Positions 501-25,540 of a DNA stretch of 26,116 bases are shown piece by piece (the stretch's first letter is position 1; each line of letters starts with the position of its first letter). The DNA comes from Chromera velia (lineage: Eukaryota; Sar; Chromeraceae): positions 1 to 26,116 of the forward strand of contig JAHBMJ010001788.1 in NCBI GenBank assembly GCA_018398765.1. Reading direction: 5' to 3'. The notes below the pieces were generated by a model, which saw only the letters and a list, made by a program, of their open reading frames with translations, made no database searches and had not been told where the DNA came from. Both the position numbers and the translations under genes were made by a program.

Positions 501-1408
501 ATGATGAGCGCTGTGTGAGTGAACCACCCCTAGTCGGTACGATGCAGAATGGGTTTCATTGAGTGATGGCGTCTCGTTTTTCTTCTTGTCCTGTCTGTGT
601 GATTTTCTGCCTGCAGGCACATCAGCTACGGGGCCCTTGTGTCGATTGCGGTCAAGGGAGTCCAAGAAGGAGAGGGAGAGGAGGGCTCTTGTCGCCATCC
701 CTCTCTCGGAGTTCTCTTGGGCTCCTTTGTCCCTCAACTTGGCACAATTGTGAAGTCGAGTCGCGAAGTTTCTTCGCAGACACACACGGGCTCAAAGGAA
801 GCACAAGACGACATCGCTAGGGTGATTGAAGAGATGAAAGAAGACACCACGAAGAAAGGACAACAAGAGGAATCTGTGCTGGGAGTTTATGTGGCTGGAC
901 GGGGAGATGAGACCTCCCTCTTCGAATCTGCAAAGGATGCGGTGGGTCACACAGCAAGGCAATAGACTGAAAACTCTTGTCATTTTGTTCATTGACCCGG
1001 CCGAGGCACTCGACATGCAACCGTCTGACCCTGCCTGATCCCTTTCCCAACTTCCCCTGCGATATATATATGTGTGCTTTTGCCATATTTGTCTTGTGTA
1101 TGTCTTCCCTGTGTCCGTGTTGTCTGCAGGTGCCTGCGTGTCTGCCTGGTGCCCTTCTTCTGAACTTCCATGTCCCCCCCCGGAAAGGAGAGGGAGAGAA
1201 GGACTCAAAGACAAGCAGCGACCTGGAGTCAGTGATGCTCGCGTTGACGATGGCTGCTTCCTCTACTGACTCGAGAGGGGACCGGGAAGAGAAAGATGAA
1301 GGAGGGACGAGGGCTCTGCCCTTCGTGGCCGTTCACCGCAAGCAGGAAGACGAAGACGAGAAAGGAAAAGGAGACGAGTGGAAGCCCGTGACGTACGCGC
1401 TCTTTGCG
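501..1408 (+). other. Exons 1-3: N-terminal MPN-like domain, JAMM motif absent
   Basis: Residues about 4-206. The order of predicted strands and helices follows MPN domains of the CSN6/eIF3f/eIF3h class. It opens with a strand and helix (VHISYGALVSIAVKG), followed by a GVLLGSF strand typical of MPN domains, a second strand, and a helix around IARVIEEMKED. Next comes SVLGVYVAGRG where MPN proteins carry the (L)GWYHSHP or GWYxTG segment, then a core strand ALLLNFHV, then LPFVAVH and KPVTYALF, which match the paired late strands. Catalytic MPN+ proteins need HxH followed by S and D; here that site reads VYVAGRG, so a metalloprotease is unlikely. Non-catalytic MPN domains act as dimerisation scaffolds in the proteasome lid, COP9 signalosome and eIF3. 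A charged insertion lies between the last strands. The assignment is by pattern only; a structure or profile search would decide it. Confidence 0.5.
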
Positions 1409-1691
1409 GTCAGTTTCGCTGAATCTGATGTTTCTACCTCATTTACTGCTTTAACCTTTTCAGTGGCAGTACTGCCCTCAGCCCTTCCCCAACTTTTTGT
1501 TGGCTCTGGGAGACGACTTTTGCGCGTGGCTACCTTCTCTCTCTTCTCGTTCGGTTGTCCCCCCCCTGTCCACAAACTGCCGATCCGGTTGTATGGCGAG
1601 GAGTCCATACGCGTGCCCCGCAACATCTTCTTCCTTCCTTCCTTTCTCCGCTCTTTTCTTCGCTGTTTTCTCCTCTCTTCTCCTCTCTCTC

Positions 1692-1731
<40 letters not shown>

Positions 1732-4700
1732 TACGTATGTATGTATGTATGTGTGTGTGTGAGTGTGTGTGTGTGTGCAGAGGGGCCTGCCGAGGAGGGG
1801 AAGGGAGGAGAAGAACCCGCCCCTCTCCGCGGGTGCCTCGACTCTGAGCGACGACGGGGGCGGGGGCTCTCTCCCTCTCCCCCTCGACGGCACCAGCCGG
1901 TTGCCTTTAGGGGACGGGGAGGGAGAGGCAGAGGGAGGGACGGGGATACAGACGCCCGGAGAGACCGGAGCTGCCACCTCTGCCGCAGAGACGCTGGCAG
2001 ATGACGCTAGCGCCTTCCTCACAACCCCTCTGGGATTATCTTCAGGAGGGAGGAGGATCGGTGAGGAGGAGGAGGAGGAGGAGGAAGAAGACGGAGAAGA
2101 GGAAGAGGAACATCAGAAGGGACAGCATGAAGAAGAGAGAGGGGAACAGGAGAAGAATGAAGAGAAACGTGGGACAGAGGAGGAAAGGGAGAAAGGTGGA
2201 CGGTATGATGAACCCAAAAAGGTGGCTGCAGAAACTGAAGAGGAACAGGTCAGAGGGCACGCCTCAGCAAGCCTGAAGGAAGGTCTTCTCGCTGCCTCAG
2301 GATGTTTCTTTCACCTCTCTCTGACAGCGAGAAGAAGACACAGCTTTGATCCTTCCATTTCTTTGTTTTTCCTTCTGTCTCTGCTTCTATGCCTGTCTCT
2401 ATCCGTTGTAATCCATCCTCTCCGTAGTCCCTCTCTCTGTCACTGGTTGTGGCTGCTCTGTCCCACTTTCTGTTTATCCGTGTTCGCCTGCTCATACAAC
2501 CTACTCCCTCCGCACAGATTTCTCTTCGTCAGTGTCAAGTGAAACCTCCTTATCTCATTCTATCTCTGCCCCCACCCCTCCCCCCACCCCCCCACTCCGC
2601 AGAAGGATAGCACGAGTGCCTCCAACCCGAGCAGCAGACCCACGCCAACCACCACCGCAACCGGCGACCACACTCCGCCGCCCAACCAGCCCCCCCCGCT
2701 GCAGCCCCTCCGCCACGTACGCACTCACCGCTTGACCCCTGCGCAGGCCGCCCAGGCCCTGCAGTCGATTCTCGAGGCGGTCCCTGGGCCCATGCGGGTG
2801 TGCGACCTGGAGGATTCCTTCGAGGCCCAGTGCGGACAAAAGTCAGTCAGTCAAGAGCGAGGGAGGGTGAGTTCAGGCAGGCCCCAGCCTGAAGACCTGC
2901 AGATAGATCAGAAGGCATGCGGAAGGGCATGTAGACAAGCAGAGAGCGAGGGTGCAGAAAATGCTTGGGGGGATTTTCTTCGAGAGGTCATGCATGTGCC
3001 AGCCTTCCTGTTTTTTCCGAATTCTTCTAGCCCTTCCTCATGCACGGCCTTCCTTCCTTCGCTGTCCTGTCGGCGTCCCGGCGCCCGTTCCCTTTCCTTT
3101 CTTTGCGCGTCAATGAGGATGCATGCGAGCGTCTCTTTTCTCCTTTTTCGTAGGGGTTTCTACACCACCGTGCAGCCTCTTTGCTCAGTCCTCTTGTCAC
3201 ATGATGCGTAATTGTTTGATTCACTTACTGCGTTAACCGAACAACGCACCGATGGACTGTTTGACTTGACTGGAATGGTATCTAGACACTTTCGTTTTCT
3301 TCTCTGCTGTTCTTTTCTGCTCTGCCTTGTTTTGTTCCCTTCCCTTCCCTTCCCTTGCAGGGTCTCGGAGGCTCTGGGGTTTCCTCTCCTGATCTTCCTG
3401 AGGGAGCACAGTGAGACATTCCCGATGGAGGCATCGGAAGAGGGAGAAGGGGAGGAGGGGGGAGAAGCGAACGCGACCACCGACAGCAACGAAGGGGCAG
3501 AGAGCCGATCGAATCTGGTCTTCCTCAACAGACGGGGGAAGGAGGGGGCGAGGGAGATCAACAAGGAGGCGAAAGTGAACCGAAAAGTGCCGATGGTGAG
3601 TCAAATAAGACAGAAAGCCAGGCAGATGGGCAGGCTCATATTTGAAAAGAGGCCCCACTGTCTGGATCTCTCTCTCTCTCTTTTTCTCTCTCTGTGTATT
3701 CCTTTGATTTTCCCTTCTGTCGTGCTTGGGTCAAAGGCATTGATTGATAGATGTGAATAGGCAGGCTTGTGTACGTCAGTTGATTGTCATTGAAACGGCT
3801 TAATTAATTCTCTGCAGGACGAAAAGTTCGTTGTGTCAGAACTGGAGAGGCTCATCGATGAGTCCGCCTCTACAGGCAGTGGGGCTGTGTGCTACATCTC
3901 CTCTCTGTGCGGGCGGTTTATTCAGAAATGGGGAGTCTCTGTGACGTCTGTGATCGGGTCCCGTCCTCTGGATGTGTTCAAGAAGAATCAGGACAAGTTC
4001 CTCCTGCTCGGGGGAGGGTCAGTCAGTCAGTCAGTTAGGTAATCAGTCTGTCCGAAATCATTCATTCATTCTGTCGAGAGAAAAAGGGGGGGCGGGGCGC
4101 CTGTCCAGTCTCACATCGTCTCGCGCCTTGTCCTCTGTCTCTCCTTTTGCGCCCTCTGCCATTTTTGGGTCGTAAATCAACATCCTTCCTCCATTTTCTT
4201 TTTCGCTGTGTCTGCCCCCATGACGCCTTACTCTCTTTTTCCTCCCCTGAAGCATCATTGTTCTCTTCTCCCCTGTGTGCAGAAATGTGACACTCCGGAA
4301 GTGCGGGAGCAGAGAGGAAGTAATGAAGGCCCTCACCCAAGCACACACGGCTGCCATGTCGGGAGACGGCGGGGGCAGCGGCAGCACCAAGTACCGAACA
4401 CTGGGGGTGAGCGAGTACATCACAACCGGCGGGGCTGGGAGTGGCGCCGCCCTCCGTTCTCTTGCCACAACAACGGGTGCATCCCTCCCCTCCCCTTCGG
4501 CCAACCAGAAAGAGCCGAAAGTCGCTGCCCTGGAGTCCTCTCCCACTCAGGCTGGAGTGAAGACACAGACAACGTGAGTGAGTGAGATGTCAACAAGGAA
4601 AGGGAACGTGCGCTTCTTTTCTCCTCCCTCCCTTTGACGCGTGGCATTGTCACTGCGCTGCTTGTAAACACAAGTGCAAGTAGAAGAAACAGATGAAAAG

Positions 4701-5843
4701 GTTGAATGAATCCAAGTCAACATCCTCCGTCTCTCTGATCTATCTCAGTATTCGCTTCGATTCTCTCTCGAAGACCTGTCTCCTAGAGCAAGGAGGACGG
4801 AGAATAGAGTCTCTTCCACCACACTAGGTCCAATTCTCTCTCTCTCTCTCTCCCTCGCATCGTGTCCTTATTTCCTGACGATTGGATTCTCGTGGGGGTC
4901 TGCACAGAAACTCGACTCACTTGGCAAATCAATGAACGCATTTTCAGTCTTCCTTGCCTTCTTCCTTGTCCTTCAAAGATTCCCGCCACTCGAAAAGGAG
5001 TCCACCTGCTCGTTTTCTCTGAACCTCCTAGCTCGCTTTCCTTCCTCCCTTCTGTATGCGCCCCCCCCCTAATGCAACACCTGCATGTGTGTGTGGCCAT
5101 CATGGGCATGCAGGGGAGGAGAGACAAATGCCAAGGGAGAAGAATCCGCCGCCCCCTCTCCATCCTCATCTGGGGTCAAGCCAGCAGGAGGCCACGCAGA
5201 TGGAGGAGAGGCGGTTGGTGAAGCCTCCTCGGACACTGCAGGGAAGCAGCCTGCTGAACAGGGCAAGAGCGCGCAGGGCGGGGAGAAAAAGGAGACGAAA
5301 ACGAACAGCGGAAGCGCCTCTTCTCTGACAGAGCAAACAGTTCTGGAAGAGTTCAGACGCCTCATACTGGCAGACGGTGCGCACAGTGTGTACATCTCAT
5401 CTCTCTGTGGTCGCTTTCTGCAGAAGTATGGTCAGTCAACCAGAAAAGGTCTCAACCAGCCAGAAAGCGATCAGATTTCTTGCGTGCTTGCTTTCTTGTT
5501 TTCTTTCTTTCTTTCTTTCGTTCGTTCGTTCGTTTCTTTTCTTTCTTTCTTTCTTTCTTTCTTTCTCTCTTTCTTTCTCTCTTTCTTTCTTTCTTTCTTT
5601 CTTTCTTTCCTTCTTTTTTTTTTTTTTTTTTCTCTTCTTTCTTTTCTTTCTTTCGTTCTTTCTTTCTTTTCTTTCTTTCTTTCTTGCTTGCTTGAAACCC
5701 ATGTTGAACTTTTTAGGTCAGTCGGCGAAAAAGAGAAAGTCGCTCGATAGATGCAGGTGCAGTCACCACCACTGCTTGAAAGTGTTCTCTTTTGATCGTC
5801 TCTCTCTCTCTCTCTTTCTCTCTCTCCCTCCCTCTCTTTTCTT

Positions 5844-5876
<33 letters not shown>

Positions 5877-5877
5877 G

Positions 5878-5964
<87 letters not shown>

Positions 5965-8686
5965 GAAATTCCTTGGCCCGCTTCACTTTTGCATGCGAAT
6001 CTGGTCGGGGACACATGCAGTCTCTCTCCTCGCCAGCGTCCCGGTCGACGTTTTGTGTCATTTGTTAGCCAGCTGATTGTGGGGTGTGCATGGTGACTGC
6101 GTTTTAGTCTTATTCAATTTCCACCGTGCATGTTTGCCTGCTGTTTTCTTTCTGCGTGCAGGTGAGCCTGTGTCTGCTGTGATCGGGGCCCGCCCTGCAG
6201 AATTTCTGCGGAAGTACCCGGACGTATTCGTGATGACAGGTCGGTCTGGGTTTCTGTCGGTGTGTCGGCATGCATGTGTTTCGATGTGGTTATTGTAAAG
6301 CTCGGGAAGGCGGGGTGGCGGACATCGCAGTCTTCACTTCTTCTCTCTCTCCGTCTTTTTCCATGCATACCGTTCTCGCGGTTTCCTTTCACGAATGAAG
6401 AAGATGCGTATATAGCAGAGGTAAGGAAAAGAAGAAGATCGACGCCTTTGTCGACTGTCACTGGATCGGCCGCTGGATGCGTGGATGGATGGATTTGTTG
6501 TGGCTTGGTTGATGTGGATGGATGGATTTGTGGCTTGGTTGATGTATCTCTCTGCAGGAGGCGGCAACGTCGGGCTGAAGGAGATTCTGGGGGACAAGGC
6601 CGAGAGCGTCCCTCCACCCGCACCCAGAGAACCCAAGAGAGCCGTGATGGAATTCAAAAAGTCAGCATGCAGCCTGTTTCTCTACGTCTTTTTGTAGTGT
6701 GAAACAGAGGAGAAGCAGGACAGGAAGGAGCAAGGCACCAACGGCACTGCCTTCCTTTCCGATGTTTGTCGTTTGTTCGTTTTTCTCTCCAGCGCTTGTG
6801 CGTCATGCGGCCTCTCACCCTTTGACCACAAATTTTATGTATCGGTCTGTCTGTTTGCCCTCAAGCAGCAAGGGGGCTCCCTTAGTGATGAAGTCGCGAT
6901 CGGTTCTTGTTCTGTGTTCCTTCTTCTGTTCGCGTCGACATTGGTGTTCTTTTTTTCTTTGTTGATCACTGTCTCTGTTCTTTTTTTGTTGTTGATCACT
7001 CACTGTCTCTGCAGGCAGCTCGCCGCGTTCGTGTCCTCCATTGAACTCTCTGACGAGATCCTGAACCAGATCCAGCAAAGGATCGCGACACGGGAACTCT
7101 TCGCACTCATCTTCGACCAGGTGCAGAAACTGGCAGACACCCTGCAGGTCTGTCGGTTCGTTGGTTCGTTTGTGAGTCTGTGTATCGAACTTCTGCCGGT
7201 GCTCGCCCTGCAACGGACCTCACGATGCCCAGTCGTGATTCTTTCGGTCTTTGTTTTTTCCATTCAAACACTGGGTGCACGCAGACCATATTTCCTTTTC
7301 TCCCGGCCTGATATCGTCTCGCCCATCCCACCTTCTGCTCCCCTCTGTTCCTCTGACGTGTCCGTCTGGAGAGAATGGAGGAAGGAAAGAAGGAAGACGA
7401 CTTGTTCTTGTGTTCCTTCCAAGGGCGGTTCTTTCTCTCTGCCATCATAAAAGGGAGTTGGTTGGTATTCAATTAGACGAACTGAAATGGAGCTTTTGTC
7501 TTCTTGTTTGTTTCTGGCTGCTTTCTTTCCTTTTTGCAGCGCCACTCTTTTCTGCTGGTGAAAGATGTGGTGAGAGGTGGCAGTGTTGGGAAGGGCCTGG
7601 TGACGATTGAGAACAGAGACGCGGCCTTCGTCTTGGTCGTGCGTCAACTGCCCAAGGTGGACCACTCGAAATGGTGCGTCGGTCTGTCTGTCGGTCTTTC
7701 CGTGAGATTCGTCCGTCGGGCTGTTGTGTGCGTAGGTTGGTGTGCTTGAGGGTTGTGGTGCTCTCGTAGGTAAATTCAAGCAGGAGTCTAAGTTCGGTTG
7801 GGCAAATATCTATCCGCCTTTCTATCTATCTATGTATCTATCTAATTTGCATATCTGGGTCATCGATTCCCGTCTTCTTTCCTTCCCTTTCGCTTTCCCT
7901 TTCATTTTCGTTATTGCAGTGGTGGCCTTTTCCCATTTTCCTTTTTTATTCGCTGCAGTGATTGTTGTATGTGTTCCTTTTGATATTCAGTCGGTCTGAT
8001 CTTCTTCCGACGACGATGCCTTCCTTCTTTTCGTTCCAACTCTGCACGCAGGCTTGAGAGTACTCTGGAGTCCCTTCAGAGCATTCTGGAGATGAGCATC
8101 GGTCGGGAGAGGGGAAAGAACTTCAGGGTAGACTCAGAGAGCGCCTCGATCAAATTCACCCTCATGATCTCCAAACGACAAGCAGAGCAGTACTTCTCTC
8201 CACCCTCACCTGCACCAGGGACAGCGTGCTCACAGCAGGCCTCGCGGGATAATTCGAATAATAACTCTGTGTCTTCACAGTACGGGGGAGAGAGGGGGAG
8301 CAACGTGCCTCCTGTGACTGACCAGACGCTAGCCCAGTCTCTGGCTGAAATTCTTGTGCAGGAGGGAGTCGACATCTGGTCAGTCAGGCGGGCAGTCAGC
8401 AAGTTGGTCGGGTGGGTAGAGGAGGGAGAAATCTCGGTGTCTCTGTGTTTGCTTGGTTGATTGATTGGTCGTGGAGGTGAGAAACGGACATCTCTGCTTC
8501 CTTTTTGGGGGTCTTCAGCTTGATTCTCTCTCATTGTCTTCTCTTCTCTCTTTCGCGGGGTCTCTTTGTTTTCGCTGGTTCAATGTCCATTTTTCTTCTC
8601 TTCGTTTTCAAGCGTCTCGGATGGGAAAGGAAGGCCGGGCATGCGAGTCAGAAGGAAGGAGTACAGACCCGTTACTGACAGTGGGC

Positions 8687-8735
<49 letters not shown>

Positions 8736-11700
8736 TGTGTCTATATGTGTGCACGCGCGCGCGCGAATTTGAATTTGAGCAATTCGGGTGCTGATTTCCC
8801 TCGCAGTCCTTCAATCAAGTCCTCTATCCCTCCCTCTTCTCCCTGCCTGCCTGCAGCATCCAACTGAGTCCAGAGTACGGCGACAGGGACGAACTGATGT
8901 CCTGCATCCAGCAGGCCGTGCCCTCACAGCGGCACTTCTTCAGACCCTCGCTCCTGTCCGACGAGGTCTATCTGGTCTCCAATCAACCTGCACACGTGCG
9001 CACTTGCCTCCGCCTCGTGAAGTTTTGGGCTGCCAAACAGGTCAGTCAGTCAAGCCATTCACTCTCTCTCTCACTTACGCAACTAGGTCAACCTGTTACG
9101 GTGTCTAACCTGCATGCGTACAGCTTTTTTCAATTTCTTGGTGGTTGGCAGGGCCTCTGTATGCTCTTTCCTGCTTTTCTTCCGCTGTCTTCGAACTCCC
9201 CCAAGGCATTGTGATGGCAGTCCTCTTCATTCCCTTCACACCTTGACCGTCAGCCTGTCTGTCTGTCTGTTTCTCTCTGCAGAGCTGGGCCTCTCCCCAC
9301 ACGACTCCAGACCCATACTTGCTCGAGTTGGTCGTCATCCACTCTGTCTTGAAGGCGCGGGCAACGGCAGAGACAGGGACCGCCAGGCTGTTGGAACTCG
9401 TGTTTGCCGATTTGAGGGACTTCGAGAGCCTCCGAATTTTGTGGGCAGACACAGACCTGGCTCTCTATAGGGTCGGTAGGTTCTCTTTCTAGACTGGTTG
9501 CTCTCTCAGTGCCCTCTCTCTTTTCCCAGTCCACATTTCTGTTGGCAAAGAGAAGAACGCAGGCTTCACTCGCCAGCTGCGACCGCAGACGAAAGAACGG
9601 GGAATGCAGGGAAGGACGGAAGAAGTGGCAGACAGGATTGAGCGAACAACTCTCGCTGTTGAGGCCAGGTCCCTTTTCTCAATCAAGCCTTGAAGGGACC
9701 AGATCTTCCACACACTCTCCCTGTCTTTTCTGCTCCGGCGGAATTTTTCGAAACGCGCAAGTCGCTAAACCTCGTCCCTCATTGTGCCCCCCTTTCGTAC
9801 GCTGCTCTTTGGGTTCTTTCTTTGAATGCTCGCGTGCGTCAACTGTCACGTTCCCCCCCTCTCCTCTGTTTCCTTCCACTGTGCAGCTCCCAGACATCTG
9901 GAGGCCGCTCTTGTGCCAGAGCCCTATCGTGATGGACCCCGTGAACCCGTTCAGAAACCTTGCAGACCCCCAAGTTTTCGATGGCAGACAGCTGGTCGCA
10001 TTCGCACAACAGCAGGGGGCCCTGGAGTGTTTCCGGAAGGAGGCCGCAAAACTTCCTTCAGTGCAGGTGGGGTGGGTGAGTGTCTTATGAAAGGAGACGG
10101 GGGGGGAGGTCATGTGAAACGCATGGTGTGTCAACCTATGCGTTTCCATTTCGCCTGCCTTCCTGCCGGACCAACACAAATGCTACAAGTCCTCCAACAC
10201 GAGAACATTGATGTTTTGTTTCTTACCGCCTGCCCTACCATCTTGTATTTGCCCAAATAAAAGTCTTCGTTTTTTCCTTTTCACTGTCTATCCTTCTCTC
10301 CTGCATGCAGGCATCCCTTCACAGTGCCACTGGAGGCAGTCTGATGGCTTCTTTCCGTGCCAAGGCAGAGAGACGGGATGACCCCCTCAGAGGAAGCACT
10401 GAGGAGAAGGAGCTTCACCTCGGAGGCGGAGACAGGGAGAGAGAGCGAGAACGCACTGACTGCCCTAGTGACGCAACACCCCCCCGAAGCCGTAGTCAGC
10501 CAGCCGATTACCCGACTCCTCTTCACTCAGAGCAGAGAGAAAGGGGCAACACAGCGGAATCCAGAGAAGGAAGAGGAGGGAGATTCCCGAACCCCAAAGA
10601 AACCCATGCGGCAGCTGCGGCTGCGATGGCTGCTGACGGGTTCATCCTCGACAAGCAGGCGGCAGCAGACAGGTCCCAGCAAGCTGTGACTCGTCACAGC
10701 CCCCCTCCATCCTCCCCCCCCTCATCCCCGTCTGAGGACAACCAGCACAGCCAGAGAGGGGCTGTCGTTGTCTCCCCCACACCCGAAGAGCGAGAGATGC
10801 CTCATTCCAACCCAACAACAACCGACCCCATCTCCACGAAGCCCACTCCTCCTGGGGCCGCCCCCCTCTCAGAGCTTCAGCAGAACTACCAGGAGGCCGC
10901 CTTCAATGGAGAGCCGCAAGCTCAAGGCCAGACGGAGACACAGGAGCCGACTGAGACTGCAGCGGCAAAGAAAAACAAAAGACGAAAGGCAAAAAAGAAG
11001 GAGATCAGAGAAGAAGCTCAACAGAACCTGCAGGTACGTGCTCCCTTTTCGTTCCATTTTGTTCTGAGCCAAAAAAGGAGATCTGTCACTTCGAATGTGT
11101 TCCTCCCTTCCCGTCTTGTTTGTTTCAGGTGCATGCATGTGAATCCTTTTTGTTCTGCAGATGCAGCTCCTTTCAAAAAAGGACCTTGGGCCTTTCAGAC
11201 CTCCCTACTAGCTCAGGTCTCTTTTCTTTCCTTTCGTATTCGCCTTCTGTTGTCACCTCTCCCTCTGTCCCTTCCCACCCACCCTTGAACGAACGAACCT
11301 GCAGGTCGTCGCTTCTGTTCACCCCCAGCCGCAGCAGTTTCCACAGCAGCAGGGGGCCAACACGCAGGCCTCCCGTCTGCCCTCCCCTTCCAACGCGCTG
11401 GGAACAAACCTGAACCCGCAGGCACAGGAATTCTGTCCGGGCCTCTGGGGGGGATCAGCAGCGGCAGCAGCAGCAGGCGTGCATGGGGTGGGAGGAAGCG
11501 TTCAGCAGAAGGAGCCCATCTCGCTCTCTCAGGTGCTCAATCTCTCTCCTGCAGTCGGCGTCTCCCCCCCTCGAGGCACCCCAACGGGCACTAGTGTCCC
11601 TCCAGGGTTCTCTCCTGTCAACGCTCAACGTCCCAATCCCCCTCCCCCCCCTCCGATGGCGTCGCGCCCCCTGATCCCCCAACCTCCCCCCCCTCTGCCC

Positions 11701-12459
11701 GAAGCCTCGGCAGAGAAGCCACCGGGCAAAAAGAAGAAAGCGAATGCGCAGTCTCTGGCAGCTGCGGGGGCGCCTGGAGCCGCTTCTGCAGTCGCTGGTG
11801 CTGCCAAAGGGGCAAAGCAGACAAAAACAGCGGCAGCATCGAAGAACAAACAGCAGCTGCAGATGCCAACGCAACACCCGATGCCTGTCGTAGTCCCTCC
11901 TCCGCCTCCCGCCCCCCCCGGATTCGAATCGGTTGCTCCCGGTCCCTCTGACCCTTTCGCTGCTTCCGACAGTTCCTTCGGGGCTTTCGGACTCGGAGGG
12001 CAGCACAACTACCCCCTCTCGTCGACACACCCCACCCATACTTCTCCTGAACCCCTCTGGGGGGTGAGTCGTTCCTCCGCTGGAATTGGAAGCGGGGGCG
12101 TGGGAGGTTTAGCGAAGGGAAAGCCCACTGAGACCCGTCCTGCCGGCATAGGAAGGGGTTTCGGTACATCGAGAGGAGTGTTCGGTCAGCACGGTCTGGC
12201 GGGGGGGTCCTCTGCGAACGGGGCTGGGGGTGAGATGCCTTCCTTCAGGCAGCCGCCGGGGGTCTCCCTGACGAAGGGAGGGGGGCCCCCGGGCCTGCAT
12301 GGGATGGGGGTCGGGGGGGACTCTGAATACTCCGGGGACTCGTTTGGGCTGTTGGACGGTCGGGAGCGTTTGGACCCTTCCGACACTCAACTGAAGGACG
12401 AGGATGATGAGGGCGTCTTCGGGGGTGGTTGGGGAGGGGGGGCACCTTTCTGGCAGTGA
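501..12459 (+). CDS. MPN-like / triple winged-helix (LOTUS-like) / OAS-like nucleotidyltransferase fusion protein, 19 exons
   Basis: This is a hand-built gene model. Exons: 501-514, 617-941, 1130-1408, 1781-2248, 2603-2841, 3361-3595, 3818-4017, 4283-4573, 5114-5430, 6162-6239, 6558-6660, 7015-7147, 7540-7673, 8052-8378, 8857-9040, 9283-9471, 9887-10075, 10311-11033, 11305-12459. They total 5,583 nt, an exact multiple of three, with no internal stop. All introns are GT-AG, every acceptor ends GCAG, and every donor has G at +5. The start is chosen because the 14-nt first exon (ATG ATG AGC GCT GT, then GTGAGT) restores the phase of exon 2, giving an N-terminus MMSAVHISYG that begins a plausible MPN domain. 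Domain order: MPN-like about 4-206; acidic linker about 207-362; winged helices about 406-465, 521-596 and 755-827; OAS-like catalytic lobe about 850-1047; OAS1-C-like lobe about 1048-1235; disordered tail 1236-1860. The main uncertainties are whether the MPN part is a separate gene (the break would fall in 2249-2602), the donor of exon 17 (10066 or 10075, both in phase) and possible optional exons. Likely role, inferred: RNA binding or sensing, or translational control. Confidence 0.72.
1694..1778 (+). repeat. GT-rich microsatellite immediately before acceptor of exon 4
   Basis: A GT dinucleotide tract with embedded GTAT units occupies the 3' part of the intron and runs directly into the GTGTGCAG acceptor at 1780. 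It replaces the usual pyrimidine tract. A CT-rich stretch just upstream (about 1620-1693) could serve as the polypyrimidine element. Confidence 0.9.
1781..2248 (+). other. Exon 4: acidic low-complexity linker with Glu run
   Basis: Residues about 207-362, in phase with both neighbouring exons. The first half is Gly/Pro/Ser/Thr-rich. The second half is dominated by Glu, with an uninterrupted run encoded by a GAG-repeat tract at about 2062-2090, followed by Glu/Lys/Arg-rich sequence that could form a charged helix or remain disordered. No domain is recognisable. The frame overlapping positions 2001-2276 would give a strongly basic Arg/Lys peptide, but only the acidic frame joins the flanking exons in phase. 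The exon follows an intron that ends in a long GT microsatellite directly before the acceptor. Confidence 0.6.
2603..3595 (+). other. Exons 5-6: first winged-helix (LOTUS/OST-HTH-like) repeat
   Basis: Exon 5 starts with a Pro/Ser/Thr-rich spacer. From LTPAQAAQALQSIL (about residue 406) it encodes a helix, then VPGPMRVCDLEDSFEAQCG, then (in exon 6) VSEALGFPLLIFLREHSETF. The pattern is helix, short strand, helix, a second helix with an aromatic-rich end (FLxxHxxxF), then a wing. It matches the two clearer repeats downstream and the general LOTUS layout (LxxLL, VxxxxLxxxYxxxxG, LGYxxLxxFLxxxPDxF). This copy is the most diverged of the three. The intron 2842-3360 splits the domain after the second helix (phase 2). 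Exon 6 then runs into an acidic and basic spacer that ends at a GTGAGT donor. Confidence 0.5.
3818..4573 (+). other. Exons 7-8: second winged-helix repeat plus Gly/Ser/Thr spacer
   Basis: Residues about 521-596 form the domain: a first helix FVVSELERLIDES, the signature VCYISSLCGRFIQKWG, then VTSVIGSRPLDVFKKNQDKF, and a wing LLLGGGNVTLRKCG split by the intron after the glycines. It is very similar to the third repeat (shared YISSLCGRF, a VIGxRP core and GGGNV), so the two probably arose by internal duplication. The remainder of exon 8 is a low-complexity spacer ending at ACAAC followed by GTGAGT. LOTUS domains are known to bind RNA (G-rich or G-quadruplex) or Vasa-type helicases; applying that here is inference. 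Confidence 0.6.
5485..5695 (+). repeat. CTTT/GTTC tetranucleotide microsatellite in intron 9
   Basis: About 200 bp of CTTT units with CGTT, CTCTTT and poly-T interruptions, almost pure pyrimidine on the plus strand. It lies in the 731-bp intron that splits the third winged-helix repeat. The apparent open frames here (Phe/Leu/Ser on plus, Lys/Arg/Glu on minus) are repeat artefacts. Confidence 0.95.
5799..5959 (+). repeat. CT dinucleotide microsatellite in intron 9
   Basis: A near-perfect CT tract of about 160 bp with few CTTT and CTGT interruptions, in the same intron as the CTTT tract. The mirror-symmetric pyrimidine sequence could form triplex (H-DNA) structure under supercoiling; that is inference from the base composition. 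Confidence 0.95.
6482..6544 (+). repeat. Tandem duplication in intron 10
   Basis: Two adjacent copies of a unit starting TGGATGGATGGATTTG and ending TGGCTTGGTTGATG, at 6482-6514 (33 bp) and 6515-6544 (30 bp). They differ only by a 3-bp indel, which points to a recent duplication. Confidence 0.9.
7015..8378 (+). other. Exons 12-14: OAS-like nucleotidyltransferase catalytic lobe, altered D-x-D
   Basis: Exon 12 (residues about 850-894) encodes an N-terminal helical segment like that of OAS proteins. Exon 13 encodes VKDVVRGGSVGKGLVTIENR, which aligns well with the OAS segment [20 protein letters not shown] and includes the G-S nucleotide-binding loop (G908, S909). The OAS metal site is D-A-D followed by hydrophobics; here it reads D921-A922-A923-F, so the second Asp is missing. 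Exon 14 encodes a helix (LESTLESLQSIL), a strand pair (FRVDSESASIKFTLMIS, also reminiscent of the DZF domain of NF45/NF90), a Ser/Asn/Gln-rich insertion of about 60 residues, and GVDI, where D1046 could be the third catalytic Asp. OAS enzymes make 2'-5' oligoadenylates on dsRNA. Activity here is doubtful; a DZF-like or OASL-like pseudoenzyme is the main alternative. Confidence 0.65.
7806..7843 (+). repeat. TATC tetranucleotide repeat in intron 13
   Basis: A short imperfect TATC/CTAT array interrupted by CGCCTT and TATG, within the intron between the GGSxGKG exon and the next exon of the OAS-like domain. Confidence 0.8.
8689..8765 (+). repeat. CT-GT-GC compound microsatellite in intron 14
   Basis: A run of CT, then a GT run, then alternating CGCGCG. 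The alternating purine-pyrimidine part (GT and GC) is the kind of sequence that can adopt Z-DNA. It lies in the intron 8379-8856. Confidence 0.9.
8857..10075 (+). other. Exons 15-17: C-terminal helical lobe of OAS/DZF type
   Basis: Residues about 1048-1235. Exon 15 contains HVRTCLRLVKFWAAKQ, matching the OAS hallmark LKSLIRLVKHWYQ. Exon 16 continues with SWASPHTTPDPYLLELVVIH, matching the LPPQYALELLTVYAWE region, then helices LLELVFADLRDFESLRILW. Exon 17 contains SPIVMDPVNPFRNLAD and RQLVAFAQQ, matching the OAS segment VILDPADPTGNLGGGD and WRQLAQEA. This lobe (OAS1_C) completes the nucleotidyltransferase and helps bind dsRNA in OAS proteins; cGAS and DZF proteins have related lobes. Exons 15, 16 and 17 all end in phase 0. 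Exon 17 has two possible in-phase donors nine bases apart (after 10066 or 10075); the second, GTGAGT, fits the gene's other donors better. Confidence 0.68.
10311..12459 (+). other. Exons 18-19: long disordered C-terminal tail with Lys-rich patches and PPG-hydrophobic motifs
   Basis: Residues about 1236-1860. Exon 18 is hydrophilic and charged, then Pro/Ser/Gln-rich, ending in a strongly basic patch (AAAKKNKRRKAKKKEIREE) that could be a nuclear localisation or RNA-contact segment. Exon 19 is Gln-, Ala-, Pro- and Gly-rich, with a second Lys patch (PPGKKKKANA), several poly-Pro runs and a Gly-rich acidic end. Four PPG-hydrophobic motifs occur: PPGF at 1575 and 1680, PPGV at 1793 and PPGL at 1804. 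PPG followed by a bulky hydrophobic is the known ligand of GYF domains. The frame is open without interruption for 1,155 nt to the TGA at 12457-12459. Codon choice is GC-rich like the rest of the gene. No folded domain is apparent. Confidence 0.65.
11161..11216 (+). other. Possible alternative cassette exon that would end the protein early
   Basis: Inside the last intron a 56-nt segment is bounded by a CTGCAG acceptor (ending 11160) and AG followed by GTCTCT. Included after exon 18, it would add a short peptide beginning MQLLSKKDLGPFRPPY and then stop, removing the whole PPG-motif tail. Skipping it joins exon 18 (phase 0) to exon 19 (phase 0) without a frameshift, so skipping is taken as the main form. 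It may be a poison exon, an alternative end or chance. Confidence 0.25.
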
Positions 12460-23740: not shown

Positions 23741-24900
23741 TTGCGGAAGGAATTTGTGTTCTCCTTGTCTATAAGAAGGAATGAATGCAGAGAGGGATCT
23801 TTGCCCTTCACTGTGTGCAGGAAGAAAGGAATGTATACAGATGGATCTGCGTCTGCAAGGAGGAATGAAAGCAGAGAGAGGGATCTTTGCCCTTCGCTGC
23901 CTGCAAGAAAGGAGTGAATGCTGAGAGAGGGATCTGTGTTCTCCTTGTTTGTAAGAAGGAATGAATGCAGAGAGGGATCTTTGCCCTTCACTATGTGCAG
24001 GAAGAAAGGAATGCGTACAGATGGATCTGTGTCTGCAAAGAGGAATGAATGCAGAGAGAGGGATCTTTACCCTTCACTGTGTGCAGGAAGAAAGGAATGC
24101 GTACAGATGGATCTGTGTCTGCAAGGAGGAATGAATGCAGAGAGAGGGATCTTTGCCCTTCACTGTGTACAGGAAGAAAGGAATACATACACATGGATCT
24201 GCGTCTGCAAGGAGGAATGAATGCAGAGAGAGAGATCTTTGCCCTTCGCTGTGTACAGGAAGAAAGGAATGCATACAGATGGATCTGCGTCTGCAAGGAG
24301 GAATGAATGCAGAGAGAGGGATCTTTGCCCTTCGCTGCCTGCAAGAAAGGAGTGAATGCTGAGAGAGGGATCTGTGTTCTCCTTGTCTGTAAGAAGGAAT
24401 GAGTGCAGAGAGGGATCTTAAATGTTTATCCTTGTCTGGCTGCAAGCATGAAGAAATGCAGAGAGGGATCTTTGCCTTTCACTGTGTACAGGAAGAAAGG
24501 AATGCAGAGGGATCGATCCGTGCCTGCCAGGAGGCATGAATGTGGAGAGGGGGATCCTTTCCCTTTGTTGTCTGCGAACGTCTACGAAGGAATGAGTGTA
24601 GAAAGGGATCTTTGCCCTTTACTGCATGCAAGAGAAAGGAATACAGAGGGATGGATCTGTGTCTGCCAGGAGGAATGAATGTAGAGAAGGGGATTTTTTC
24701 CTGTTTGCTGTGTGCGAACGTTTGTGAAGGAATGAGTGTAGAGAGAGGGGTCTTTTCCCTTTGCTGTCTGCGAACGTTTGCGAAGGAATGAGAGCACAGA
24801 CGGGGATCTTTTCCCGTTGCTGTCTGAACAGGAATGAGTACAGAGGGGGGGATCTTTGCGCTTCGCTGTCTGCAAAAAGCCATGAATACGGAGACGGGGA
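23741..24900. repeat. Minisatellite with higher-order structure (84-86-bp and about 95-bp units)
   Basis: Unit A is 84-86 bp. It starts near GCAGAGAGAGGGATCTTTGC and includes AGGAAGAAAGGAATG and a GATGGATCTG core. Unit B is about 95 bp and includes GTGAATGCTGAGAGAGGGATC and GTGTTCTCCTTG. Starts of the GCAG marker fall at 23787, 23871, 23967, 24051, 24137, 24223, 24309 and 24404, giving the order A-B-A-A-A-A-B. Degenerate copies follow to about 24900. Because 86 is not a multiple of three, the reading frame rotates from unit to unit. Open frames on both strands are therefore a by-product of the repeat and not evidence for a protein. Confidence 0.85.
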
Positions 24901-24971
24901 ATTGTGGCAGCACAAGGATCTACAGACGATCCGAATGGATGAAAGTGCTTTCTCATGATGATCGAGGGTAC

Positions 24972-25201
24972 GAATGTTGCCTCGTTTCGAGGAGCGAAGG
25001 TGTGTCACTGAATGCTGCTTCCTTTCGAAGCGCGAAAGTGTGAATGCTGCCTTGTTCCGAGGAGCAAAGGTGTGAATGTTGCTTCGTTCCAAGGAGCAAA
25101 GATGCGAATGTTACCTCGTTCCGAGGAGCTAAGGTGTGAATGTTGCCTCGTTTCGAGGAGCGATGGTGTGAATGGTGCCTCGTTTCGAGGAGCAAAGGTG
25201 T
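24972..25201. repeat. Minisatellite of 32-bp units with palindromic core, 7 copies
   Basis: Unit starts at 24972, 25010, 25042, 25074, 25106, 25138 and 25170; all spacings are 32 bp except the first (38, a 6-bp insertion). The consensus begins GAATGTTGCCTCGTTTCGAG and ends GAGCAAAGGTGT. Its centre CCTCGTTTCGAGG (or CCTCGTTCCGAGG) is a short hairpin, with paired changes in some copies. No coding role is evident. Confidence 0.9.
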
Positions 25202-25540
25202 GACTTAAAAGAGACGTGAGCATGAACCACGATCGACCTCCGTCCTTCGTTTTCCGAAGGAAGTTGGCTGATGGGTGCTCACGGAGCCGGGAAAACGAAT
25301 CGGACGCTTCCATACGAGGGGGTGACACTGTCCATTCGAATTCACCGACTGATCTCCAGAAGGCTTCTCTTATTCCTCTCATTTTCACCGATCATTGTTG
25401 TTCTTTGTTGTTTTTCATAGTTTTTCATCTGATTTGATTTCTTTCGAATCTTTTTTTGCAGTGAGATGCGGCGACGATGCTCAAATGCCCGGCTCAAGGC
25501 TCTGCAGGCGCCGCCACGCCTTTTCATGCAACACTCCATG
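25202..25540 (+). other. Stretch with possible splice signals, gene uncertain
   Basis: An ATG at 25222 opens a short plus-strand frame starting MNHDRPPSFVFRRKLADG, but it has no good donor. A GTGAGC donor at 25216 could pair with a strong TTTTTTTGCAG acceptor ending at 25462, giving a 247-bp intron of the same style as those in the large gene. What it would join is unclear, since upstream lies the 32-bp array. The minus strand is also open over much of this span (about 25005-25388). Confidence 0.2.

What the first reader, a model, noticed from the sequence alone, without database searches (positions are those of the whole stretch)
501..12459. Undescribed fusion: MPN-like domain, three LOTUS-like winged helices and an OAS-like nucleotidyltransferase in one protist gene
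Nineteen exons join in phase into about 1,860 codons. The pieces point separately to MPN scaffolds (proteasome lid, COP9, eIF3), LOTUS/OST-HTH RNA-binding winged helices, and the 2'-5'-OAS/DZF nucleotidyltransferase family. OAS proteins are best known as dsRNA sensors of animals. An OAS-like protein in an alveolate-like genome, wired to RNA-binding and scaffold domains, would be a new arrangement and possibly a protist RNA-sensing or RNA-silencing factor. The exon phases and splice patterns are read from sequence, the families are recognised from memory of their motifs, and the biology is inference.
Basis: partly seen in the sequence, partly recalled or inferred. Interest (0 to 1): 0.92.

Follow-up and report, generated by a model that had tools for sequence, protein, structure and literature searches.

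The report
OAS-like pseudoenzyme fused to winged helices
A single-celled alga, probably a relative of malaria parasites, appears to carry one long gene that joins winged-helix domains of an RNA-regulator type to a degenerate relative of the animal antiviral RNA sensor OAS, which suggests an RNA-handling adaptor rather than an enzyme.

Summary
The gene is real. Nineteen exons (501-12459, + strand) give 1,857 aa with 18 of 18 introns GT-AG. A simple gene finder trained on other genes of the genome recovers the same start, stop and exon count: 394 bits, against 26 on the other strand and at most 20 in 20 shuffles.

Domains: the OAS-like nucleotidyltransferase is firm (OAS1_C E 9e-11; a family profile hits OAS2 at 5.5e-32, NF45/DZF only at 0.067). 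The winged helices are Egalitarian-type (WH_Egal E 4.8e-7, over cut-off). The MPN call is weak (JAB E 0.013, below cut-off).

That OAS is an animal matter fails: a published survey puts OAS-like proteins in 8 of 12 supergroups, and this genome holds three further members. This copy lacks at least two of three catalytic carboxylates and three of four dsRNA contacts checked.

Best reading: a catalytically dead adaptor for structured RNA, analogous to Egalitarian and OASL; RNA binding is inferred.

The parts
501..12459 (+). whole gene, 19 exons, 1,857 aa: 501-514, 617-941, 1130-1408, 1781-2248, 2603-2841, 3361-3595, 3818-4017, 4283-4573, 5114-5430, 6162-6239, 6558-6660, 7015-7147, 7540-7673, 8052-8378, 8857-9040, 9283-9471, 9887-10066, 10311-11033, 11305-12459
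501..1408 (+). exons 1-3, residues 1-206: MPN-like domain (about residues 4-135), no JAMM metal motif seen, then an acidic stretch
   Evidence: JAB E 0.035 / 0.013, below cut-off; small MPN profile 6.0 bits, 9 of 20,000 shuffles as good, other profiles weaker
1781..2248 (+). exon 4, residues 207-362: acidic low-complexity linker (net charge -27)
2732..3484 (+). WH1 (residues about 406-483, exons 5-6): divergent Egl-type winged helix, acidic (net -13 over 410-483)
   Evidence: WH_Egal E 0.016 and 0.066, below cut-off; aligned with WH2/WH3
3818..4301 (+). WH2 (residues 521-593, exons 7-8)
   Evidence: 46% identical to WH3; no profile hit of its own
5325..6583 (+). WH3 (residues about 755-824, exons 9-11)
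   Evidence: WH_Egal E 2.2e-5, 25.3 bits alone; residues 1-849 reach 30.6 bits, cut-off 27, 2 stretches
7015..10066 (+). OAS-like nucleotidyltransferase module (residues 850-1232, exons 12-17)
   Evidence: OAS1_C E 9.2e-11; PDB OAS1/OAS2/OAS3/OASL
7576..7596 (+). GGSVGKG motif (residues 907-913), equivalent of OAS1 GGSSGKG
7612..7629 (+). NRDAAF (residues 919-924): equivalent of OAS1 D75-A-D77; second Asp is Ala
8966..10045 (+). OAS1_C match (residues about 1085-1225) incl. MDPVNPFRN
10311..12459 (+). exons 18-19, residues 1233-1857: low-complexity tail with a basic run KKNKRRKAKKKE and four PPG[F/L/V] motifs (first at 11599-11610)
   Evidence: the least certain join of the gene

Best explanation
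A single large adaptor protein of a chromerid alga (probably Chromera velia). Shown: gene structure by sequence, OAS-class nucleotidyltransferase by profile, Egalitarian-type winged helices by profile, loss of catalytic residues in this copy. Inferred: the three wings and the catalytically dead OAS-like module, joined by flexible linkers, act together as a composite reader of structured or double-stranded RNA, and the weak MPN-like head and the proline/glycine-rich tail dock partner proteins that decide the fate of the bound RNA. It would work like Egalitarian (three such wings plus an exonuclease-like domain whose putative catalytic residues are dispensable) or OASL (inactive OAS domain that binds dsRNA and acts through other domains), not like an oligoadenylate-making enzyme.
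For: Single open chain of 19 exons. Splitting at MPN|WH1 or WH3|OAS lowers the coding score (359 and 380 against 394) although a split saves one intron penalty and no charge is made for an extra gene. OAS class. WH_Egal over cut-off. Broken site: D75 kept, D77 to A, D148 position L or C according to alignment. Precedents (passages and one section seen): Egl ED1 and ED2 with its exonuclease-like domain and a neighbouring helical domain grip stem-loops (PMC13186709); OASL is inactive, in part through loss of one carboxylate, yet binds dsRNA (PMC4446440). Two GYF domains over the cut-off exist in the genome that could read PPG[F/L] motifs (4 in the tail, 0.22 expected; the ligand rule is recalled).
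Against: No binding data. The OAS-like module is not basic (net -4), WH1 is acidic (-13), WH2 and WH3 are near neutral (+1, 0). Of the OAS1 dsRNA contacts K60, R195, K199, K204 (list recalled; OASL equivalents of two are named), only position 60 stays basic (R); V, S and H stand at the others. The wing residues that read RNA in Egl could not be compared: no Egl chain came up in the PDB searches. MPN is sub-threshold, and the PDB search with residues 1-206 gave no MPN protein. Six-frame family searches of the own genome did not list the window for OAS1_C, JAB or WH_Egal; the domains are cut by introns. No transcript proof of one gene; several splits score slightly above 394 when a second gene is free (best 403.1).
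Confidence: 0.4

Rival explanations
1. Protein-interaction scaffold only: the pseudo-nucleotidyltransferase and the wings serve dimerisation and partner binding (as NF45 or the MID49/51 pseudo-NTases do, recalled), with no direct RNA contact.
For: Neutral to acidic composition of WH1, WH2, WH3 and the OAS-like module; three of four OAS1 dsRNA contacts checked are lost; MPN-minus domains are scaffold parts of the lid, COP9 and eIF3 (recalled).
Against: Egl-type wings and LOTUS-like folds are met in RNA regulators (PMC13186709 and PMC9750867, passages); position 60 stays basic.
Confidence: 0.32
2. Two or more neighbouring genes read as one: an MPN-like gene, a wing/OAS-like gene, and possibly a separate low-complexity tail gene.
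For: No transcript data. With no cost for an extra gene, some splits score above 394: 403.1 (before the last part of WH2), 400.9 (OAS|tail), 398.5 (inside the OAS-like module), 398.2 (after exon 2). The relatives show no MPN or wings by eye in 10 kb upstream of the C3577 and C3426 loci or about 6 kb upstream at C690.
Against: MPN|WH1 split 359, WH1|WH2 split 389, WH3|OAS split 380; the splits at 403.1, 398.5 and 398.2 cut through a domain; the chain runs 501-12459 unaided.
Confidence: 0.15
3. An active OAS-like or CD-NTase-like second-messenger synthetase with RNA-sensing wings.
For: OAS class by profile; weak matches to CBASS cyclase models (E 2.1e-5, 9.3e-5); the C690 relative could still have a carboxylate triad (D, E, and E under one alignment, by eye).
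Against: In this copy D77 is A and the D148 position is L or C; CBASS_cyclase_a reaches 23.8 bits against a 200-bit cut-off.
Confidence: 0.05
4. A factor of the small-RNA pathway (RNA silencing).
For: The genome has Piwi-domain matches on 14 contigs; LOTUS-type proteins sit in piRNA and germ-granule pathways of animals (listings and abstract starts).
Against: Nothing found in the gene points to that pathway specifically; the wings are Egl-type, whose known member moves mRNA.
Confidence: 0.08

Closest known systems
Egalitarian (Egl), Drosophila mRNA-transport adaptor (PMC13186709, section 6 and passages seen)
   Same: three LOTUS-like winged-helix 'Egl domains' joined by flexible linkers to an enzyme-like domain whose putative catalytic residues are dispensable; Pfam WH_Egal matches here
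   Different: Egl has a 3'-5' exonuclease homology domain plus a tetrahelical domain and binds BicD; here the enzyme-like part is an OAS-class nucleotidyltransferase, with an MPN-like head and a long tail
OASL and other inactive OAS domains (PMC4446440, passages seen)
   Same: OAS-class module with incomplete catalytic triad in a larger protein
   Different: OASL has dsRNA contacts R196 and K200 and ubiquitin-like domains; here the equivalents of those two contacts are V and S, and wings are attached
OAS superfamily of non-animal eukaryotes (PMC10732462, abstract and passages seen)
   Same: OAS1_C domain; OAS-like homologues reported in 8/12 supergroups
   Different: its main text has no occurrence of Chromera, alveolat- or LOTUS; its supplements were not seen
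MARF1 / Md1 / TDRD5-7 LOTUS proteins (Md1: PMC9750867 passages; the others: listings, abstract starts)
   Same: one or several OST-HTH-like wings in post-transcriptional regulators, including apicomplexan Md1
   Different: the OST-HTH cut-off is not met here, and Pfam scans of residues 1-1473 gave no NYN, Tudor or RRM domain

Membership tests
OAS superfamily | OAS1_C domain (PF10421) over its curated cut-off | tested here: met
   42.1 bits against 19.9, E 9.2e-11
OAS superfamily | closer to OAS than to other pseudo- or CD-NTases of solved structure | tested here: met
   3-member profile: OAS2 5.5e-32, OAS1 2.4e-16, OASL 3e-13, OAS3 9.7e-11; CdnC 0.0021; ILF2 0.067
OAS superfamily | GGSxGKG motif of the N-lobe | tested here: met
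   GGSVGKG, residues 907-913
active OAS enzyme | three catalytic carboxylates (D75, D77, D148 in OAS1 numbering) | tested here: not met
   D, A, and L or C (alignment-dependent)
OAS dsRNA-binding groove | basic residues at 60, 195, 199, 204 of OAS1 (list recalled) | tested here: not met
   R at 60; V, S, H at 195, 199, 204
OAS superfamily | OAS fold by structure | not testable with these tools
DZF (NF45/NF90) | DZF_N profile match | tested here: not met
   not listed for the window module at E up to 10; one relative (C3426) 12.3 bits against 27.1, E 0.17
CBASS oligonucleotide cyclase | NCBIfam cut-off of CBASS_cyclase_a | tested here: not met
   23.8 bits against 200, E 2.1e-5
Egalitarian winged helix (PF23713) | profile over cut-off | tested here: met
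   30.6 bits against 27 on residues 1-849, 2 stretches; single wings alone are below it (WH3 25.3, WH1 16.1, WH2 not listed)
Egalitarian protein | 3'-5' exonuclease homology domain | tested here: not met
   no such Pfam hit, which covered residues 1-1473; residues 1474-1857 were not scanned
OST-HTH/LOTUS (PF12872) | profile over cut-off | tested here: not met
   WH3 12.0 bits against 23.8, E 0.2
MPN / JAB domain | profile over cut-off | tested here: not met
   15.7 bits against 22.5, E 0.013, the only family listed for residues 1-133
MPN / JAB domain | similarity beyond composition | tested here: inconclusive
   residues 1-133: 9, 265 and 625 of 20,000 shuffles reach the score with profiles of 6, 5 and 3 sequences; residues 1-206: 23 of 20,000 with the first; left-out true MPN controls 44.6 and 47.6 bits against 6.0
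MPN+ metalloprotease | JAMM motif HxHx(7)SxxD | tested here: not met
   none in residues 85-135, by eye (sequence; motif recalled)

The most novel reading that the evidence does not exclude
A protist counterpart of Egalitarian in which a dead OAS stands in the place of the exonuclease-like domain: a composite RNA-structure reader that arose by putting Egl-type wings on an ancient immune nucleotidyltransferase, and that hands its RNA to a GYF-domain-type repression or mRNP machinery through PPG[F/L] motifs in its tail. It would be an immune-type sensor turned into a housekeeping RNA adaptor.
Probability: 0.15. Interest if true: 0.8.

Novelty: new variant of a known kind. Interest (0 to 1): 0.55.

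Why it matters
If the fusion holds, it shows that OAS-class proteins outside animals can lose catalysis and be recruited into larger adaptor proteins, which bears on what the ancestral OAS did before 2-5A signalling. It also places Egl-type winged helices in a lineage next to the apicomplexan parasites, and joins two otherwise separate ways of reading structured RNA in one polypeptide that could be expressed and tested.

Tried and rejected
Tried without result: structure prediction (not available); viral-contig scan with the family profile (61 pattern stretches, none confirmed); genome-contig scan (29 stretches, none confirmed); phage searches (no match); PDB searches with the MPN-like region (only low-complexity matches) and with the wings (best E 1.1 and 0.33, no Egl chain); own-genome search with residues 1-131 for other MPN-like genes (only the window, the C1327 scrap, and five matches at E above 2). 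Rejected: DZF/NF45 class; an active CBASS-type cyclase for this copy; canonical OST-HTH; an MPN+ protease. A first MPN test with three own-genome exons was weak (625 of 20,000 shuffles as good) and is reported beside the stronger one. An exon at 11161-11210 would add 16 residues and a stop after residue 1473; I left it out by hand and the chain leaves it out too, but a short isoform stays possible. The intron just before the GGxVGKG strand lies three codons apart in the window gene and in relatives C3426 and C3577 on alignment A1 (phase 0 in all three), so I count it as near-coincident, not as the same position.
Full report
What was examined. The window is one whole contig (C1785) of an assembly of 177.8 Mb in 4,040 contigs. 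The size is near that of Chromera velia, whose published assembly is 193.66 Mb in 5,953 scaffolds (PMC4501334, passages seen). The species name is inference, resting on size and on recall of the genome's composition.

The gene. Nineteen exons join in phase from 501 to 12459 (5,574 bases, 1,857 aa plus stop); 18 of 18 introns are GT-AG and 18 of 18 acceptors are CAG. A Viterbi chain with codon log-odds trained on seven coding stretches elsewhere in the genome (three of them from the relatives C3577 and C3426) and splice patterns set after seeing the window found one 19-exon chain with the same start and stop. 14 of 19 exons were identical, and the other five differ only in the donor. It scored 394 bits, against 26 on the minus strand and a mean of 12, maximum 19.8, in 20 shuffles. 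In 17 of 19 exons the assigned frame had the best mean codon score of the three forward frames. This is far beyond chance.

One gene or several. Allowing two genes at no extra cost, a split between MPN and WH1 scores 359, between WH1 and WH2 389, and between WH3 and the OAS-like module 380, against 394 for one gene. Some other splits score higher than 394: 403.1 (reading exon 7 into its intron and so cutting off the end of WH2), 400.9 (between OAS-like module and tail), 398.5 (inside the OAS-like module) and 398.2 (after exon 2). So the two joins that matter most are supported, the tail join is undecided, and none is proven without transcripts.

The OAS-like module. Residues 850-1232 match Pfam OAS1_C at E 9.2e-11 (42.1 bits, cut-off 19.9). 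Alone they hit OAS2, OAS1 and OASL in the PDB (6 distinct sequences, E 6.6e-9 to 3.2e-4). A profile of three family members (A1) hits OAS2 at 5.5e-32, OAS1 at 2.4e-16, OASL at 3e-13 and OAS3 at 9.7e-11, but CdnC at 0.0021 and ILF2 (DZF) only at 0.067. It is OAS-class, not DZF-class. The six-frame OAS1_C search of the own genome did not list the window, whose module is spread over six exons.

Catalysis and RNA contacts. On the profile alignment with OAS1 (read together with A1; the chain numbering places the Asp pair at 75 and 77), the window keeps D75, has A at 77, and has L or C at the place of D148, depending on how that strand is aligned. The active site of this copy is broken either way. 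Relatives, by eye: C3426 has S, D and no acid at 148; C3577 has S, E and either E or no acid; C690 has D, E and either E or no acid. C690 may still be active, so I do not call the whole family dead. Of four OAS1 dsRNA contacts (K60, R195, K199, K204; list recalled), position 60 stays basic (R) and V, S and H stand at the others. OASL, also inactive, loses dsRNA binding and function when several such residues are mutated (PMC4446440, passages). dsRNA binding by this module is therefore possible but not supported by its residues.

The family in this genome. Two relatives are over the OAS1_C cut-off (C3577 and C3426), each 35% identical to the window module over the matched part. A fourth, C690, was seen at E 0.064 with the window query and at 1.4e-7 with the C3426 query, and its exons were read. 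By eye, 10 kb upstream of the C3577 and C3426 loci shows long low-complexity N-terminal exons and no MPN or wings (part of the C3426 stretch reads N); about 6 kb was read upstream at C690.

The winged helices. WH3 matches WH_Egal at E 2.2e-5 alone, and residues 1-849 reach 30.6 bits, over the 27-bit cut-off, with two stretches. WH1 is weak (E 0.016). WH2 has no hit of its own but is 46% identical to WH3. OST-HTH reaches only E 0.2. PDB searches with the wings found nothing, and the own-genome WH_Egal search listed only another region, on C1282.

The MPN-like head. JAB is the only Pfam family listed for residues 1-133 (E 0.013, 15.7 bits, cut-off 22.5). Other tests are mixed or negative: 9, 265 and 625 of 20,000 shuffles as good with three small profiles, with real MPN controls at 44.6 and 47.6 bits against 6.0; no MPN protein in the PDB search; the window not listed in the own-genome JAB search. 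I take it as a divergent MPN-minus domain with probability about 0.7. No JAMM motif was seen.

The tail. Exons 18-19 are low-complexity with a basic run and four PPG[F/L/V] motifs where shuffles give 0.22 on average. The C3426 N-terminal exon has two (0.16 expected), the C3577 one none, and two stand in ORFs at C690 that may belong to that gene (by eye). Such motifs can be GYF-domain ligands (recalled), and the genome has two GYF matches over the cut-off. This is a lead only.

Mechanism. The closest working parallel is Egalitarian: three wings on flexible linkers plus an exonuclease-like domain, in which ED1, ED2, the exonuclease-like domain and a helical neighbour grip a bent stem-loop, ED3 is not seen, and the putative catalytic residues are dispensable (PMC13186709). 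Here the enzyme-like part is OAS-class. The inferred function is a structured-RNA adaptor. Against it stand the neutral or acidic composition of the domains and the lost OAS contacts.

Known or new. PMC10732462 (abstract and passages seen, supplements not) finds OAS-like homologues in 8/12 supergroups, probably since LECA, so an OAS relative in an alveolate is no surprise. Searches of the paper library listed no paper that, by title and abstract start, describes OAS joined to LOTUS/Egl wings or to MPN. These are open-licence papers only; two searches returned none, and the listings of 28, 49, 56, 57 and 85 were shorter than their hits. No eukaryotic protein database could be searched, so the arrangement may exist unannotated elsewhere.

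Noticed in passing
L020 (C3577), L021 (C3426), L026/L034 (C690): Three further OAS-like genes in the same genome; C3577 and C3426 have long low-complexity N-terminal exons; the C690 copy has D-A-E at the catalytic pair and a low-complexity insertion in its C-lobe.
   Followed up: partly
L027, L028 (C1282:1-18000): A proline-rich gene region with two WH_Egal-like wings (24.8 and 25.8 bits, just under the cut-off) and an RRM-like exon by eye.
   Followed up: partly
C1327:44804-44995 (L042): A scrap matching 171 window bases of exon 2 with its splice donor, 84% identical, with frame-breaking indels: a decayed DNA-level duplicate.
   Followed up: yes
11161-11210: Possible alternative exon between 18 and 19 that would end the protein 16 residues after residue 1473.
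   Followed up: no
23766-25203: Tandem repeat arrays with units from 32 to 172 bases. Ten ORFs that I picked between 13.7 and 25.8 kb gave no Pfam match at E 0.05.
   Followed up: partly
own genome, 23 rows: Piwi-domain matches on 14 contigs, 13 of them with a match over the cut-off: an expanded Argonaute/Piwi set.
   Followed up: no
C3945:45261-45455, C3489:63107-63229: Two OST-HTH matches over the cut-off elsewhere in the genome.
   Followed up: no
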